Below, piece after piece: positions 75 to 10,262 of a DNA stretch of 32,968 nucleotides. Numbering within the stretch: position 1 is the stretch's first letter; each line of letters opens with the position of its first letter. The notes beneath the pieces are model-generated. The model did not search any database and was not told where the DNA came from. It saw nothing but the letters and a program-made list of their open reading frames with translations. The DNA comes from Bacilli bacterium (lineage in GTDB: Bacteria > Bacillota_I > Bacilli_A > RF39 > UBA660). A program made the position numbers and the translations under genes. The DNA is taken from contig JAFRIU010000001.1 of the NCBI GenBank assembly GCA_017432645.1, positions 1 to 32,968 on the forward strand, read 5' to 3'.

Positions 75-168
75 ATCAAATACAAATGAATTTTGTTATG
101 TGAAGTGTGTTACATCTTTGTAGCAATTGCTCCATTTGAAATAAACGTCGAAATAATCGACGTTTTTT
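75..168 (+). ncRNA. Candidate small RNA ending in a terminator
   Basis: Between the promoter at 40-68 and an intrinsic terminator at 144-168 there is no convincing gene; the only reading frame begins at the ATG at 86 and has five sense codons. The transcript would be about 90 bases. CAAATG (83-88) can pair with CATTTG (133-138) to close the body of the RNA, and GCAATTGC lies inside. The terminator stem AACGTCG/CGACGTT (144-150 and 158-164) is followed by a T run. I recognise no known RNA family. It could instead be the tail of a leader or an untranslated region of something outside the window, but the complete promoter-terminator pair argues for an independent unit. Confidence 0.4.
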
Positions 169-169
169 T
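144..169 (+). terminator. Intrinsic terminator
   Basis: Seven-base-pair stem AACGTCG/CGACGTT with loop AAATAAT, followed by seven Ts. It lies at the 3' end of the minus-strand fic gene (its stop codon is at 168-170), so it separates converging transcripts. Confidence 0.75.
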
Positions 170-1136
170 ATTTTAAAATTTGCCAATAACCTGTTTTATC
201 TGAACCAATTCTTTCAACTATTGAATTATCTATTAATATTTTAAAATTTCTTTTAATAGTTCTAACGTTAACTCCAATAATATTTGCTATTTCATTTTGT
301 GTAATTCTATTATTATTAGTAATCAATTCTATAATTTTATTTTGTATATCATTCAAAGTAAAATTACTATTTATAATTATTTTATCTAATGATGAATTAA
401 TTATATTTATAAGAAATTTAATAAAGACGTTAACATTACCATTATTATGACATTTAGCAATTGATGAGTAATATTCATCTTGTTTTAAATATATTTCTTC
501 TTCTACAGGTATAAATTCAAATTTTTTATTATAATTAATTAACATTAGTGAAACCCAAAATCTGGCTAATCTTCCATTTCCATCAGAAAATGGATGAATG
601 GATACAAAATAGTAATGAAAAATTGCTGATAAAATAATAGTATTTAGCCCACTATCATTAATATAATCAAATAGACTTTTCATTAATGTTGGAACTAATA
701 TTGCTTCAGGTGCCATATATATAATTTCATTATTTTTTTTAACACCTTCACCATGATTTCTATAGCTACCATTATCTTCATCAAAGTATTTCATCATAAG
801 CTCATGAACTTCTAACAAATCTTTTTCACTTTTATAATCATATTCATTTATATGATTATAAACCTCTATTGCATTTTTAACTTCCTGAACTTCATCTTTT
901 TTACCTATCACTTGTTTATTTTCTGATATATTTTCAACATCAAACAATGATAATGAATTTGCCTCTATTGCAAGTGATGAATGAACTGATCTAACTTTAG
1001 CTTTTGAAATCATATATTTTCTTTTTTGCCTATCGTTAATTTCAATGATATTTAATTTTCTTTCAATTTCTTCTATTATTTTTTTCATTTCATCATCAAT
1101 ATGAAATATAGGTATAATTTTATCAAATAAATTCAT
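168..1136 (-). CDS. Fic family protein with C-terminal winged helix
   Basis: This 322-residue protein carries the Fic core motif IHPFSDGNGRLAR (HPFx[D/E]GNGR), the signature of enzymes that transfer AMP or related groups from nucleotides to protein hydroxyls. The N-terminal part contains SSLAIEAN, the place of the inhibitory helix motif [S/T]xxxE[G/N]; here Ala follows Glu. The last 60 or so residues (TQNEIANIIGVNVRTIKRNFKIL) form a helix-turn-helix, a common arrangement in this family and consistent with self-regulation. The gene is monocistronic. It uses AT-ending codons even more heavily than its neighbours and sits alone between terminators, which suggests lateral acquisition. The start ATG at 1136 fits the family's N-terminus. 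The target protein cannot be told from sequence. Confidence 0.92.
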   Translation of the reverse strand: MNLFDKIIPIFHIDDEMKKIIEEIERKLNIIEINDRQKRKYMISKAKVRSVHSSLAIEANSLSLFDVENISENKQVIGKKDEVQEVKNAIEVYNHINEYDYKSEKDLLEVHELMMKYFDEDNGSYRNHGEGVKKNNEIIYMAPEAILVPTLMKSLFDYINDSGLNTIILSAIFHYYFVSIHPFSDGNGRLARFWVSLMLINYNKKFEFIPVEEEIYLKQDEYYSSIAKCHNNGNVNVFIKFLINIINSSLDKIIINSNFTLNDIQNKIIELITNNNRITQNEIANIIGVNVRTIKRNFKILIDNSIVERIGSDKTGYWQILK

Positions 1137-1193: not shown

Positions 1194-1257
1194 ATTTTTT
1201 GAAATAATTTTATTTTTATATGATAATTTATAATATCAAGTGCACCACATGATGATT

Positions 1258-1287
1258 TCAAAAAAAAAGACTATAAATTAGTCTTTT
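1258..1287 (-). terminator. Terminator of the RNHCP-HAD-887 aa operon
   Basis: Stem AAAGACTA/TAGTCTTT (1266-1273 with 1279-1286), five-base loop, and a run of about eight Us on the minus-strand transcript. It overlaps the stop codon of the 887-residue gene. Confidence 0.8.
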
Positions 1288-3949
1288 AAAATGAAAATGT
1301 AGAAGAAGAAGCATTTAGTAAATCTGTAAGATCCAATTCTTGAGAAACCCGTTCAAATATTTTCTTTCTTTCATAGATTCCACTATCTTGAAATAAAGAA
1401 GAGATTTTTAACTTTGTTTCCTCATCATACACACTAGACTCAGATAATAATTTATGAAAATAATAATCTTCATCAATTACTACAAGAGGGATATTAAAAT
1501 CACTAGCTGCCTTTATACAACTTTCATAATATTTAGCTTTTCTAACAGATTGAATATAAGAATCCAATAATTGTGAAAGAGGAATATTCAGATGATCGGC
1601 TTGCTGAGAAATGAAATCATTATATTTCATAAACAGAGCTAATAATTCCTTTGGTCGTTTCACTTTCTTAATTTCTTCTTGATCTTCTACAGAAAGAAAA
1701 GATAAAGTAGTTTGATATAAAGTTTCCAAAAGTAGGAAATTACTAGGATCCATATTACTTGCCCTCATAATAATATAGTCTGGTTTTCTTTTAAAATGTT
1801 TTCTATTTAATTGTTCTGTATTTCGTCTTTCTATTACAATTTCATTATATCCAACTGTTTTTAATATTTTTTGAGGAAGAAAAAACCTTGCTCTTTGTCC
1901 ATTTCTTTGCTGCACTTCTCTAGAGCCATTATAAGAAGAGGCATAACTTCCATAAGAATCGATATCCGTTCTTCCCATAGCTAAGATAGAACCACCCTCC
2001 AAAGAATCAAATGCAAGAACAACATTATCATCCGTTATAGAAGAATAAATTCCTTTTTCACTAATGTAGCTACAAGCAACAAAATGATCCTGTAATTGAG
2101 GCATTTCCATCCAGTTTGTCATATAATTATCCGTAGTTTCTTCAGAAAAATGACCAAGACAATGAATAAAAAACTTAAAATTTGTTCTTGGAAAATAAAC
2201 CGGTATTGTGTGATTGTGGTAAGTAAATTGGCTGGAAATATGATCTTTTGGACCATATACTCCCTCTCCCTCATCGACTTTGTACAAAGATTTAGAGTAT
2301 AGCTTAGTATATTGACTTCTTATATAAGGCTCTAGTGGAATTTCTCCTTTATAAAAGGCCTCTTCATTTTGCTGTTGATAAAGATTAAAAAGCATTTCCT
2401 GATCTTGACACTCTACAATTTCTCCAATAAGCACAAAATAATGATAGATTGTACTAGATAACTCACTTTCTTTTAACTGTTCAAGGACATTTTTGTCTTG
2501 ATGACAATATTTATCCCAAATGTATTTTGCTTCTTGAAAAGAAATATTGAAAAGGACAGCCAATAAAAGATCTTTATTTGTATCTAAATCATGATTATCA
2601 AACTCTTCTATAAAAAACTTTCTCTTTATTTCCTGATAGTTCTCTAATTGACCCAAAGAATGAATACGAAATGGATTTTTAGATAGTTGTAAAACACTAA
2701 CAAGACTTCTTATTTCATGATTAGATAAATCATTAGCTGAAATAGTATCTATCAGCTCAGGATAATCCTTTATATTTTGAATAATATTCACAATCATAGA
2801 AGAAATGTCATATTCTTGATAATCATAAAGTTCTAGAATTTTTTTTAAAATAGAAAGCTCTTTATCGGTTAATTTAGCAATCTCCATTTGAATCGTAATA
2901 TCATTAATAAATCTTTCATAATGTTCCTCAGGTAATTGAAAGATAGAATCTCTGAAAGATGTTCCCACAATAGTTTGAAAAATATCATGATTCCTTTCAT
3001 AATAATGGAATAACCATTGAGCTCGATGTTTAAGATTTTCTGGATCAATTTCTAATTCTTTTGCATAACGAGAAGCCAAAGAAGGCTCTTCCATTATATA
3101 AGGAGGAATGATGCATAAAATAGCCAAATCCAATCGATCCTTTTTAATACATTCATCTCTAAATATTTCTGATCGGACAAGGCAAATTGGCATAATCTTA
3201 CTGTCAGATACTACTTGAATTAAATAATCAATATTATCGGTAACTAGTTTACGAAAAGAGATTCTTCCATGAGAAGGGTCCTGATCATAAATCACTTTTT
3301 CTTTTAATAAATCTAGTAAGATAGCTAATTCCTCTGCATCCAATTGATCTTTTAAGTCAAATAGATGCTTAGCAAAACGATCTGTTCCTAAATAGTCTGG
3401 AATCTTTCCCCCTTTTTTTATGAAAAGAACTAGTTTTTTTAAATTAGAAACAGAGTAACCTTCTAATTGACGTATACAAGAAGTTTTACCTTCTTCTAAA
3501 GCAATTCCAATGAAAGAATTTACTTCTTCTAATACATAAAAACTGATAGTATGATTTTCTCTAAGAACTTTTCTAAAGAAGCTCTCATTTTTTTCAACAA
3601 AATCGTCTAGAAGATCTTTATCATAAAAAAAGTAGGAAAAGAAATTATACCAAGAATTTTGATGCTTTTGATAAACAAGATCAAGAATGAATTTTAATTC
3701 ATCCAAGGAGAAAGTATAACCATTCATATGCAGATAATAAGTCATTTCATCACTAGACAATAAATACTCTACTAGTGTTTCAAAAGTTTCCTGATGACTA
3801 GGATCCATTCTGATATGATAATTAATTAATAGATCATATCGTTGAGCTTTTATAAGAATAAATAATAATTGATTGGAATCTAACGACTCAAAAGAATCTA
3901 ATTCTTGTAGATTCGAAATTCCCATAGCTTTCTTGACTAATTCATCCAT
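1286..3949 (-). CDS. Large protein of unknown function, two-part architecture
   Basis: I do not recognise this 887-residue protein with confidence. Residues 1 to about 560 are rich in Leu, Glu and Lys and look like a long array of helices. Residues of about 560-830 look like a separate alpha/beta domain: PRTNFKFFIHCLGHF (Arg588), CSYIS (Ser627, Ser630), a Gly/Ser/Tyr-rich stretch, YNEIVIERR (Glu703), PDYII, and near residue 820 IPLVVID. The spacing of Arg, Ser and Glu resembles the R-S-E layout of ADP-ribosyltransferases, but this is only a resemblance. There is no signal peptide or membrane segment, so it is probably cytoplasmic. It is the last gene of a minus-strand operon, five bases after the HAD phosphatase stop, with AGAGG nine bases before ATG. 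Confidence 0.75.
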   Translation of the reverse strand: MDELVKKAMGISNLQELDSFESLDSNQLLFILIKAQRYDLLINYHIRMDPSHQETFETLVEYLLSSDEMTYYLHMNGYTFSLDELKFILDLVYQKHQNSWYNFFSYFFYDKDLLDDFVEKNESFFRKVLRENHTISFYVLEEVNSFIGIALEEGKTSCIRQLEGYSVSNLKKLVLFIKKGGKIPDYLGTDRFAKHLFDLKDQLDAEELAILLDLLKEKVIYDQDPSHGRISFRKLVTDNIDYLIQVVSDSKIMPICLVRSEIFRDECIKKDRLDLAILCIIPPYIMEEPSLASRYAKELEIDPENLKHRAQWLFHYYERNHDIFQTIVGTSFRDSIFQLPEEHYERFINDITIQMEIAKLTDKELSILKKILELYDYQEYDISSMIVNIIQNIKDYPELIDTISANDLSNHEIRSLVSVLQLSKNPFRIHSLGQLENYQEIKRKFFIEEFDNHDLDTNKDLLLAVLFNISFQEAKYIWDKYCHQDKNVLEQLKESELSSTIYHYFVLIGEIVECQDQEMLFNLYQQQNEEAFYKGEIPLEPYIRSQYTKLYSKSLYKVDEGEGVYGPKDHISSQFTYHNHTIPVYFPRTNFKFFIHCLGHFSEETTDNYMTNWMEMPQLQDHFVACSYISEKGIYSSITDDNVVLAFDSLEGGSILAMGRTDIDSYGSYASSYNGSREVQQRNGQRARFFLPQKILKTVGYNEIVIERRNTEQLNRKHFKRKPDYIIMRASNMDPSNFLLLETLYQTTLSFLSVEDQEEIKKVKRPKELLALFMKYNDFISQQADHLNIPLSQLLDSYIQSVRKAKYYESCIKAASDFNIPLVVIDEDYYFHKLLSESSVYDEETKLKISSLFQDSGIYERKKIFERVSQELDLTDLLNASSSTFSF

Positions 3950-3954
3950 ATATC

Positions 3955-4599
3955 TTAACCTCTACTTTTCTGAACCAATTCTTGGAATCGATAAATAATA
4001 AAATCAGGCTGCATTGCCATCACATTTTCACTAGGATTTCCACTATGACATACATAGCAAGAAGAGCATCCTGCATTTTGAGCCATTAAAATATCAAAAA
4101 CAGTATCTCCCAAAACAAGAGTATCTTCTTTTTGAAAATGGTATTCTTCTAAAATAAGATCTACCATCTCAGAACTAGGCTTTCTGTTTACTACATGATC
4201 TTCACAAACCACTTTAGTAAATAAATCCTTTAATCCTAAAAATTCAAGTAATGGAAAAAGAGTATTGCTTCCACGATTGGTAGCCAAAGTTAAAGTGTAA
4301 CCATCCTTTTTCAATTGGGAAAGTACTTCTTTTACACCATCATATAATATGACATCAGAAAGATCTTCTAAAAAGATTTCTCCATAATACTTTCTAATTT
4401 CTGGTAATTGAGAATCTACAGCACCAAGTGCTCTCATGGCATCTGCTAAAACAGAGCCATTTAATTTTTCTACATCTTCATAAGATACTTCTTTTAAAGA
4501 AAAGTGTTTCGCACATTTTTGAATACAGTGAATAACATGAGGAACCGTATCGGCAAGAGTTCCATCAAAATCAAAAATAAGTAATTTTTTAGAATCCAT
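3955..4599 (-). CDS. HAD-superfamily phosphatase, phosphoglycolate phosphatase-like
   Basis: At 214 residues it has the usual Gph/PGMB-type length. The four HAD motifs are visible: DFDGT with nucleophile Asp10 and acid/base Asp12, Thr107 in LATNRG, Lys140 in NRKPSSEM, and the metal-binding Asp165/Asp169 in LGDTVFD. A helical cap lies between motifs I and II (residues of about 16-85). Such enzymes dephosphorylate small phosphorylated metabolites in the cytoplasm; the substrate cannot be assigned. It is the middle gene of the operon, 14 bases after the RNHCP gene, with a strong AAAGGAGAT ribosome site. Confidence 0.88.
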   Translation of the reverse strand: MDSKKLLIFDFDGTLADTVPHVIHCIQKCAKHFSLKEVSYEDVEKLNGSVLADAMRALGAVDSQLPEIRKYYGEIFLEDLSDVILYDGVKEVLSQLKKDGYTLTLATNRGSNTLFPLLEFLGLKDLFTKVVCEDHVVNRKPSSEMVDLILEEYHFQKEDTLVLGDTVFDILMAQNAGCSSCYVCHSGNPSENVMAMQPDFIIYRFQELVQKSRG

Positions 4600-4613: not shown

Positions 4614-4916
4614 TTAACTGTGAGCAGAAATTCGAATGACTTCATTTAAATCATCATCTTTTGCCATAATATTTTTATGAATATCTCCACATTTTTCACA
4701 TTGATAAATAATCTTATAAGTGTCTTTATACTTTTCCACATCAATCGGTTTTAAAAAACCACGGCAAGAGTTTTGCCGATCTCCAGGTTGAATATCGACA
4801 TGCTTAGAATACAAACAATAAGGACAATGATCTCTTGAAGAATACTCTAAAGGAACGACTTTTCTTCCACAATTCTCACAAATAAAACCTTCATCTAATT
4901 CATGAAATGCTTTCAT
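4614..4916 (-). CDS. RNHCP-domain zinc-ribbon protein
   Basis: This 100-residue protein has two CxxC pairs near the N-terminus (CENC, CPYC), the family block RDHCPYCLYSKHVD followed by PGDR and CRGF, and a third pair CEKC near the C-terminus. This is the RNHCP family of small zinc-binding proteins, with RDHCP in place of RNHCP. The molecular function is not established. An in-frame GTG lies nine bases upstream (4925), but GGGTGG is correctly spaced only for the ATG at 4916, so I start there. It is the first gene of the three-gene minus-strand operon and is divergent from scpA. Confidence 0.82.
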   Translation of the reverse strand: MKAFHELDEGFICENCGRKVVPLEYSSRDHCPYCLYSKHVDIQPGDRQNSCRGFLKPIDVEKYKDTYKIIYQCEKCGDIHKNIMAKDDDLNEVIRISAHS

Positions 4917-4975
4917 AATATCCACCCAAGAATATTATAATACAGAATTCATTTTTACAAAATTAAAATTTTTGA

Positions 4976-9407: not shown

Positions 9408-10262
9408 ATGAGTAATTTCGATGTATCATGGTTTACAACAATTTCAGGTATGTTTATTACGGGAGGAATTGTTTTATTAATTGTTGCCTTAATCATTCTA
9501 TTGGTTACAGGACAACGCTCTAAAAAGGAAAAAATCGCTTCACAAGAAATGGAAGCTGCTAATATGCAATCTGCTGAAATTCCAAACAGTCAAGGAATAT
9601 TAGGTGCAGCAAATCCTATGATGGCACCTCCAATGGATGCATCGCCAGTAATGCCTACCCCAATGGCATCTCCGATGGATATGGCACCAGCAAATCCTGC
9701 ACCAGTAGAAGTTGCGCCAATGGCACCTCCGATGGAAGCAGCACCAGTAATGCCTGCGCCAGTAGAAGTTGCACCAATGGCACCTCCAATGGAAGCAGCA
9801 CCAGTAATGCCTGCACCAGTAGAGGTTGCACCAATGGCACCTCCAATGGAAGCAGCACCAGTAATGCCAGCTCCAGTAGAGGTTGCGCCAATGGCACCTC
9901 CAATGGCTGCACCACAAATGGATGTAGCATCTGTGATGCCTGCACCAGTAGAAGTTGCACCAGCACCAGTAATGCCAGCTCCAGTAGAAGTTTCTCCTGC
10001 GCCAGTAGCAGCACCTACTATGGAAGCAACTCCAACTATTTATGGAGGGGCAAGCCCAGCAGTAGCTGGAGTTAATGTAGCTACTCCTGAAAATCATCAA
10101 ATTTATGGAGGAGCAGACCCTATGCAGAATACACAAACAATTCCAAGAATTGTTCCAACAACAGAAGCACCTACTTCACCAGTAGCGCCTCCTACCATGC
10201 AAACTGTTTCACCAGTAACAGGAGTTGCTCCTGTAACACCAGTGGGACCAATACAACAATAA
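9408..10262 (+). CDS. Membrane-anchored Pro/Ala/Met/Val-rich repeat protein
   Basis: A single N-terminal membrane segment (residues of about 13-34, SGMFITGGIVLLIVALIILLV) is followed by a positive QRSKKEK, which puts the rest in the cytoplasm by the positive-inside rule. From residue 97 there are four tandem units of 19 residues, PAPVEVAPMAPPMEAAPVM, the last diverged, then shorter PAPVEV pieces and two IYGGA motifs (near 205 and 225). This is a low-complexity extended tail with no enzymatic motif. I recognise no family; a scaffold or anchoring role is a guess. GGGAG precedes the ATG by 10 bases, and a terminator follows. Confidence 0.82.
   Translation: MSNFDVSWFTTISGMFITGGIVLLIVALIILLVTGQRSKKEKIASQEMEAANMQSAEIPNSQGILGAANPMMAPPMDASPVMPTPMASPMDMAPANPAPVEVAPMAPPMEAAPVMPAPVEVAPMAPPMEAAPVMPAPVEVAPMAPPMEAAPVMPAPVEVAPMAPPMAAPQMDVASVMPAPVEVAPAPVMPAPVEVSPAPVAAPTMEATPTIYGGASPAVAGVNVATPENHQIYGGADPMQNTQTIPRIVPTTEAPTSPVAPPTMQTVSPVTGVAPVTPVGPIQQ
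9696..9923 (+). repeat. 57-bp coding tandem repeat, four copies
   Basis: Units begin at 9696, 9753, 9810 and 9867, each 57 bases and encoding 19 residues, differing by a few third-position changes. The last unit diverges near its end. In-frame repeats of this kind can change copy number without breaking the gene. Confidence 0.9.

What the first reader, a model, noticed from the sequence alone, without database searches (positions are those of the whole stretch)
1286..3949. 887-residue unknown protein with a possible ADP-ribosyltransferase-like C-terminal domain
After about 560 residues of helical array, the protein has a compact domain with Arg588 in PRTNFKFF, Ser627/Ser630 in CSYIS, and Glu703 in YNEIVIERR, in the order and rough spacing of the R-S-E triad of ADP-ribosyltransferases, followed by PDYII and PLVVID strands. 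It is cytoplasmic and co-transcribed with a HAD phosphatase and an RNHCP protein. I cannot assign it to a family, so it may define one.
Basis: inference. Interest (0 to 1): 0.6.

Follow-up and report, generated by a model that had tools for sequence, protein, structure and literature searches.

The report
Unknown protein family, possibly ADP-ribosyltransferase-like
A large protein of an uncultured small-genome bacterium belongs to a sizeable undescribed family whose conserved domain may be a very remote cousin of enzymes that attach ADP-ribose to other molecules, but its fold matches nothing solved closely enough to be sure.

Summary
The 887-aa gene (1286-3949, minus strand) is real and belongs to an undescribed family: about 100 distinct relatives, in 76 of 386 genomes of the window's own family-level clade, almost none elsewhere, with no curated Pfam or NCBIfam match. 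H596-S627-E703 lie in strands 1, 2 and 5, as in ADP-ribosyltransferases (ARTs). Structure evidence is mixed: the window's domain (pLDDT 84.6) has the mono-ART CteC as its three best PDB matches, but only at E 0.24-0.82 and TM 0.23-0.31; a compact relative modelled with high confidence (pLDDT 94.9) shows no ART match. A profile comparison aligns E703 with the PARP catalytic glutamate (P 0.007-0.009), but at least one of 80 controls exceeds that score. So: a real new family; ART-likeness plausible (about 0.4) but unproven; a new fold is about equally likely. HAD, this gene and Fic form an accessory insertion beside conserved RNHCP/ScpAB.

The parts
1286..3949 (-). 887-aa protein of an undescribed family
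   Evidence: ORF; orthologues 43-53% identical
2270..3949 (-). residues 1-560: variable N-terminal region of helix-like composition, no detectable repeats or known domain
   Evidence: composition and self-profile comparison; no Pfam domain
1745..2242 (-). residues 570-735: conserved domain core; predicted strands 592-597, 623-630, 644-647, 655-659, 703-707, 725-730
   Evidence: AlphaFold2 model pLDDT 84.6, pTM 0.86; conservation in about 100 relatives
1520..1744 (-). residues 736-810: helical insertion present in this orthologue group and a few relatives, absent from compact members
   Evidence: alignments, model
1415..1519 (-). residues 811-845: AAxxFxIPLVVID, last strand and helix of the domain
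   Evidence: P821 96/98, D826 D or N 83/98; strand 822-826
2186..2188 (-).
   Evidence: Arg in 14/100 relatives; loop residue in the model
2162..2164 (-). H596, candidate strand-1 residue
   Evidence: H 62/99, R 6/99, T 11, S 7, N 6
2069..2071 (-). S627, candidate strand-2 residue
   Evidence: Ser 87/99
1964..1966 (-). D662, loop after strand 4
   Evidence: Asp 93/99; spacing comparable to essential D134 of CteC
1841..1843 (-). E703, first residue of strand 5, candidate catalytic glutamate
   Evidence: Glu 95/100
1257..1288 (-). A/T-rich hairpin with T tail directly after the stop codon, possible terminator between this gene and Fic
   Evidence: stem of 9 pairs, -7.4 kcal/mol; not listed by the stricter scan
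3955..4599 (-). HAD phosphatase gene, 5 nt upstream, part of the same insertion
   Evidence: Pfam HAD_2 3.6e-41; not at this site in five genus relatives
4614..4925 (-). RNHCP gene, conserved neighbour of ScpAB
   Evidence: Pfam RNHCP 3e-28; kept in five genus relatives
168..1136 (-). Fic-domain protein downstream, not at this site in genus relatives
   Evidence: Pfam Fic 6e-20

Best explanation
The C-terminal half carries a highly divergent ADP-ribosyltransferase-like domain of a new H-S-(D)-E type. H596 at the end of strand 1, S627 in strand 2, D662 after strand 4 and E703 at the start of strand 5 would bind NAD+ and drive transfer of ADP-ribose to a protein or nucleic acid chosen by the N-terminal region. 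It acts inside the cell and is an accessory gene. Shown: the gene, the family, conservation and predicted strand positions of the residues, absence at this site in genus relatives. Inferred: the ART fold, NAD+ binding, any transfer reaction, the role of the N-terminus.
For: Conserved residues fall in strands 1, 2 and 5 of the core, the positions that supply ART active sites (PMC7955679). Spacing H596-S627-D662-E703 is 31/35/41; CteC R65-S97-D134-E220 is 32/37/86, or 48 for the last without its residue 157-194 insertion, and R65, D134 and E220 are essential there. The window model's best three PDB matches are the three CteC chains, prob 0.33-0.41, next hits at most 0.13. The family profile aligns N702-E703...P723-D-Y with the PARP catalytic-glutamate strand, P 0.007 and 0.009; column shuffles reach at most 13.6 against about 21. 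E703 is followed by hydrophobics and Arg at +5, as in the catalytic strand of a genuine PF03496 ART domain found in one relative.
Against: The compact relative modelled at pLDDT 94.9 and pTM 0.92 shows no ART among its PDB matches (best E 0.87), although solved ARTs are numerous. The CteC match has E 0.24 and TM 0.23-0.31, rmsd 7-10 A, not a superposable fold. The PARP match covers 26 columns only, was tried after the motif was noticed, and at least one of 80 block-reversed controls exceeded it (maximum 22.2). H596 is His or Arg in only 68/99. No ART-clan Pfam family recurs among 91 members. No profile match to T4 ModA/ModB, though T4 Mods and PARPs do not match each other either. Strands 6-7 form a beta-alpha-beta unit reminiscent of ribosomal protein S2 and sugar-binding proteins, which is not part of the ART core.
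Confidence: 0.4

Rival explanations
1. The domain is a new alpha/beta enzyme fold unrelated to ARTs, with an active site built from S627, D662, N702-E703 and R708; chemistry unknown.
For: A very confident model of a family member has no PDB match of any kind and no viral match was found for the window domain; no Pfam, PHROGs or PADLOC family recurs among the members; the strand 6-helix-strand 7 unit is Rossmann-like.
Against: CteC tops the list for the window domain; E703 aligns with the PARP catalytic glutamate; conserved residues sit in strands 1, 2 and 5 as in ARTs.
Confidence: 0.42
2. The domain is a non-catalytic binding or scaffold module in modular proteins.
For: It occurs within proteins of 297 to 5,105 aa beside other modules: an ART exoenzyme domain (PF03496), DUF4116 repeats, HD domains.
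Against: Strict conservation of polar residues (D662 93/99, N702 91/100, E703 95/100) across members as little as 15-20% identical is typical of active sites.
Confidence: 0.15
3. It is a standard R-S-E ART with R588, S627 and E703.
For: The three residues exist in order.
Against: R588 is Arg in 14/100 relatives and lies in a loop before strand 1; no R-S-E family match by sequence.
Confidence: 0.03

Closest known systems
CteC, mono-ADP-ribosyltransferase of Chromobacterium violaceum (PDB 8ux2)
   Same: Best PDB match of the window domain; similar order and spacing of four active-site positions with equivalents of S97, D134 and E220; a helical insertion in the catalytic domain
   Different: Match weak (E 0.24, TM 0.31); His instead of Arg on strand 1; insertion at another place; CteC is an injected effector, whereas this protein has no visible export signal
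PARP/tankyrase catalytic domain (Pfam PF00644, H-Y-E ARTs)
   Same: [YH]NE...P[DE]Y[IL][IV] pattern of strands 5-6, same YNE triplet as PARP1/2; His on strand 1
   Different: No HG[ST] motif at strand 1, Ser instead of Tyr at strand 2; only 26 columns align
ADP-ribosyltransferase exoenzyme family PF03496
   Same: A true PF03496 domain sits in the same 5,105-aa protein as one copy of this domain (L165); hydrophobic strand with Arg at +5 after the catalytic Glu
   Different: No detectable profile similarity; this family lacks the strand-1 Arg in most members

Membership tests
ADP-ribosyltransferase superfamily (Pfam clan ADP-ribosyl) | Split beta-sheet fold, strand order 4-5-2 / 1-3-6 | tested here: inconclusive
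   Strand succession agrees; Foldseek gives CteC first but weakly for one model and no ART for the better model; strand-pair covariation too weak to decide
ADP-ribosyltransferase superfamily (Pfam clan ADP-ribosyl) | Active-site residues from strands 1, 2 and 5 | tested here: met
   H596, S627, E703 lie in the corresponding predicted strands; H/R 68/99, S 87/99, E 95/100
ADP-ribosyltransferase superfamily (Pfam clan ADP-ribosyl) | Significant sequence-profile match to a member family | tested here: not met
   No recurrent ART-clan family among 91 members; PARP P 0.007 at best; T4 ModA/B none
R-S-E ARTs (cholera-toxin-like clade) | Arginine on strand 1 | tested here: not met
   R588 14/100 and in a loop; the strand-1 position is H 62, R 6 of 99
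R-S-E ARTs (cholera-toxin-like clade) | Ser on strand 2 and Glu on strand 5 | tested here: met
   S627 87/99, E703 95/100
H-Y-[EDQ] ARTs (PARP clade) | HG[ST] on strand 1 and Tyr at strand 2 | tested here: not met
   VH[SC]xG at strand 1, Ser at strand 2
ADP-ribosyltransferase superfamily (Pfam clan ADP-ribosyl) | NAD+ binding and ADP-ribose transfer | not testable with these tools
   Needs purified protein

The most novel reading that the evidence does not exclude
The domain is a new enzyme fold, unrelated to ARTs, that has spread and diversified within one clade of uncultured small-genome Bacilli as a module of proteins of up to 5,105 residues.
Probability: 0.4. Interest if true: 0.6.

Novelty: new variant of a known kind. 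Interest (0 to 1): 0.42.

Why it matters
An undescribed domain with a near-invariant putative active site occurs in about a fifth of the sampled genomes of one clade of tiny-genome Bacilli, where large accessory genes are costly. If it is an ART, it adds an H-S-D-E class to the superfamily; if not, it is a new enzyme fold. In either case it gives a defined set of residues to mutate.

Tried and rejected
R588 as catalytic Arg: rejected by conservation and position. Operon partners as functional clue: rejected, not conserved. Phage or plasmid origin: no relative in viral contigs, phages or plasmids. Weak Pfam and PADLOC hits such as NDUF_B5, TTI1, PDDEXK_7, NADAR-DarT1, ThsB: single members, chance level. 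T4 ModA/ModB as ART yardstick: no match, but they do not match PARPs either, so uninformative. KptA and DUF3990 as yardsticks: no hits in the genomes searched. Strand-pair covariation from 91 sequences: the top pairs b3-b6 and b2-b5 are ART neighbours, but not significant after correction for 28 pairs. Internal repeats in the N-terminus: none found.

Full report
What is there. The ORF of 887 codons at 1286-3949 lies on the minus strand. It is a real gene: orthologues of about 800-920 residues exist in related genomes, 43% identical over the full length in one and 46-53% in the domain in others. Pfam and NCBIfam give no curated match, and the PDB no sequence match better than E 0.53. The stated residues are at the stated places.

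Family. Searching whole genomes with growing alignments found the conserved C-terminal domain in 46 of 385 genomes of the order sample, 76 of 386 of the window's own family-level clade, 10 of 395 in the class sample and 2 of 392 in the phylum sample; the matching genomes in all these samples belong to the window's clade. A scan of GTDB contigs gave 20 loci, labelled Bacilli, Erysipelotrichaceae, Candidatus Coprovivens and Faecimonas, with a few labelled Clostridia. No relative was found in viral contigs, phages or plasmids. Six relatives in the window's own genus lack it, so it is an accessory gene. Open frames that hold the domain range from 297 to 5,105 residues.

Conservation. In 100 non-redundant members: F591 90/99, H596 62/99 (R 6, T 11, S 7, N 6), W613 80/91, S627 87/99, G at position 646 87/100, F647 87/100, D662 93/99, S665 73/99, N702 91/100, E703 95/100, R708 75/97, P723 98/98, Y725 73/98, P821 96/98. 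R588 is Arg in 14 of 100. In the model of the window domain R588 lies in a loop between strands, H596 near the end of strand 592-597, S627 within 623-630, E703 at the first position of 703-707 (model residue = protein residue minus 532).

Structure. Model 1, the window's residues 533-874 with 39 sequences: pLDDT 84.6, pTM 0.86. Its PDB Foldseek list begins with the three chains of 8ux2, the mono-ART CteC (E 0.24, 0.66, 0.82; prob 0.41, 0.35, 0.33; TM 0.23 by query and 0.31 by target; rmsd 7.4-9.5), then noise with prob at most 0.13. Viral library: nothing. Model 2, a compact 256-residue relative with 91 sequences: pLDDT 94.9, pTM 0.92, same succession of elements, but no PDB match better than E 0.87 and no ART in the 50 rows shown. 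The better model thus does not reproduce the CteC lead.

Comparison with CteC. From PMC10810742: R65, S97 and E220 form the R-S-E motif, D134 and E220 hold the nicotinamide ribose, and R65A, D134A and E220A are inactive; a helical insertion runs from 157 to 194. Spacings are 32/37/86 (48 without the insertion) against 31/35/41 here. This agreement was noticed after the Foldseek hit and no chance probability was computed.

Comparison with PARPs. The family's strand 5-6 pattern [YH]NE[VI].[IL].R...P[DS]Y[IV] resembles the PARP pattern around its catalytic Glu. PARP sequences were recalled and then checked against PDB chains (the one recalled as PARP14 proved to be PARP15). hhalign of A4 against one tankyrase: P 0.05; against four PARPs: P 0.007; against six: P 0.009. 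In each case E703 is paired with the PARP catalytic Glu. Controls: column-shuffled profiles 9.7 +/- 1.6, maximum 13.6 of 60, reversed 10.0; block-reversed profiles, which keep local patterns, 14.9 +/- 2.4, maximum 22.2 of 80, against 21.5 observed. The smaller alignment A3 gives only P 0.15. This is suggestive, not significant given the number of comparisons tried. Known ARTs do no better: T4 ModA/B against PARPs gives P 0.55, so absence of profile matches does not exclude an ART.

Neighbourhood. RNHCP (4614-4925), HAD (3955-4599) and this gene follow one another at 14 and 5 nt with plausible ribosome-binding sites; an A/T-rich hairpin follows the stop codon. In five same-genus genomes RNHCP and ScpA/ScpB are kept in the same arrangement while no counterpart of HAD, this gene or the Fic gene is found in the DNA fetched around them (for one of the five only 3.5 kb were available). 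None of the neighbours accompanies the family in other genomes.

Domain company. One relative of 5,105 residues carries this domain at 2514-2756 and a PF03496 ADP-ribosyltransferase exoenzyme domain near its C-terminus (E 1.3e-14); others carry DUF4116 matches or an HD domain. This shows that the domain is a module that recombines; it does not show what it does. Profile comparison with that PF03496 domain finds nothing.

Judgement. The family is real and undescribed in the libraries searched. An H-S-(D)-E ART-like domain is the most specific mechanism the evidence supports, at about 0.4; an unrelated new fold is as likely, and no assay or distance measurement was possible.

Noticed in passing
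168-1136 (-): A Fic-domain protein with a winged-helix C-terminus lies just downstream, also missing from the site in genus relatives; two possible protein-modifying enzymes side by side in one insertion.
   Followed up: partly
L165:1236-16550 (+): A 5,105-aa protein holds this domain in its middle and a clear PF03496 ADP-ribosyltransferase domain near its end.
   Followed up: partly
L054:5309-8384 (genome G043, contig C17): Three tandem copies of the domain, two of them partial and interrupted by stop codons.
   Followed up: no
9408-10262 (+): Membrane-anchored protein with long near-perfect Ala/Pro/Met/Glu repeats (APVEVAPMAPPMEAAPVMP).
   Followed up: no
L166:3319-10398 (-), L170:292-6933 (-): Proteins of over 2,200 residues with DUF4116 matches; the one in L166 carries this domain.
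   Followed up: no
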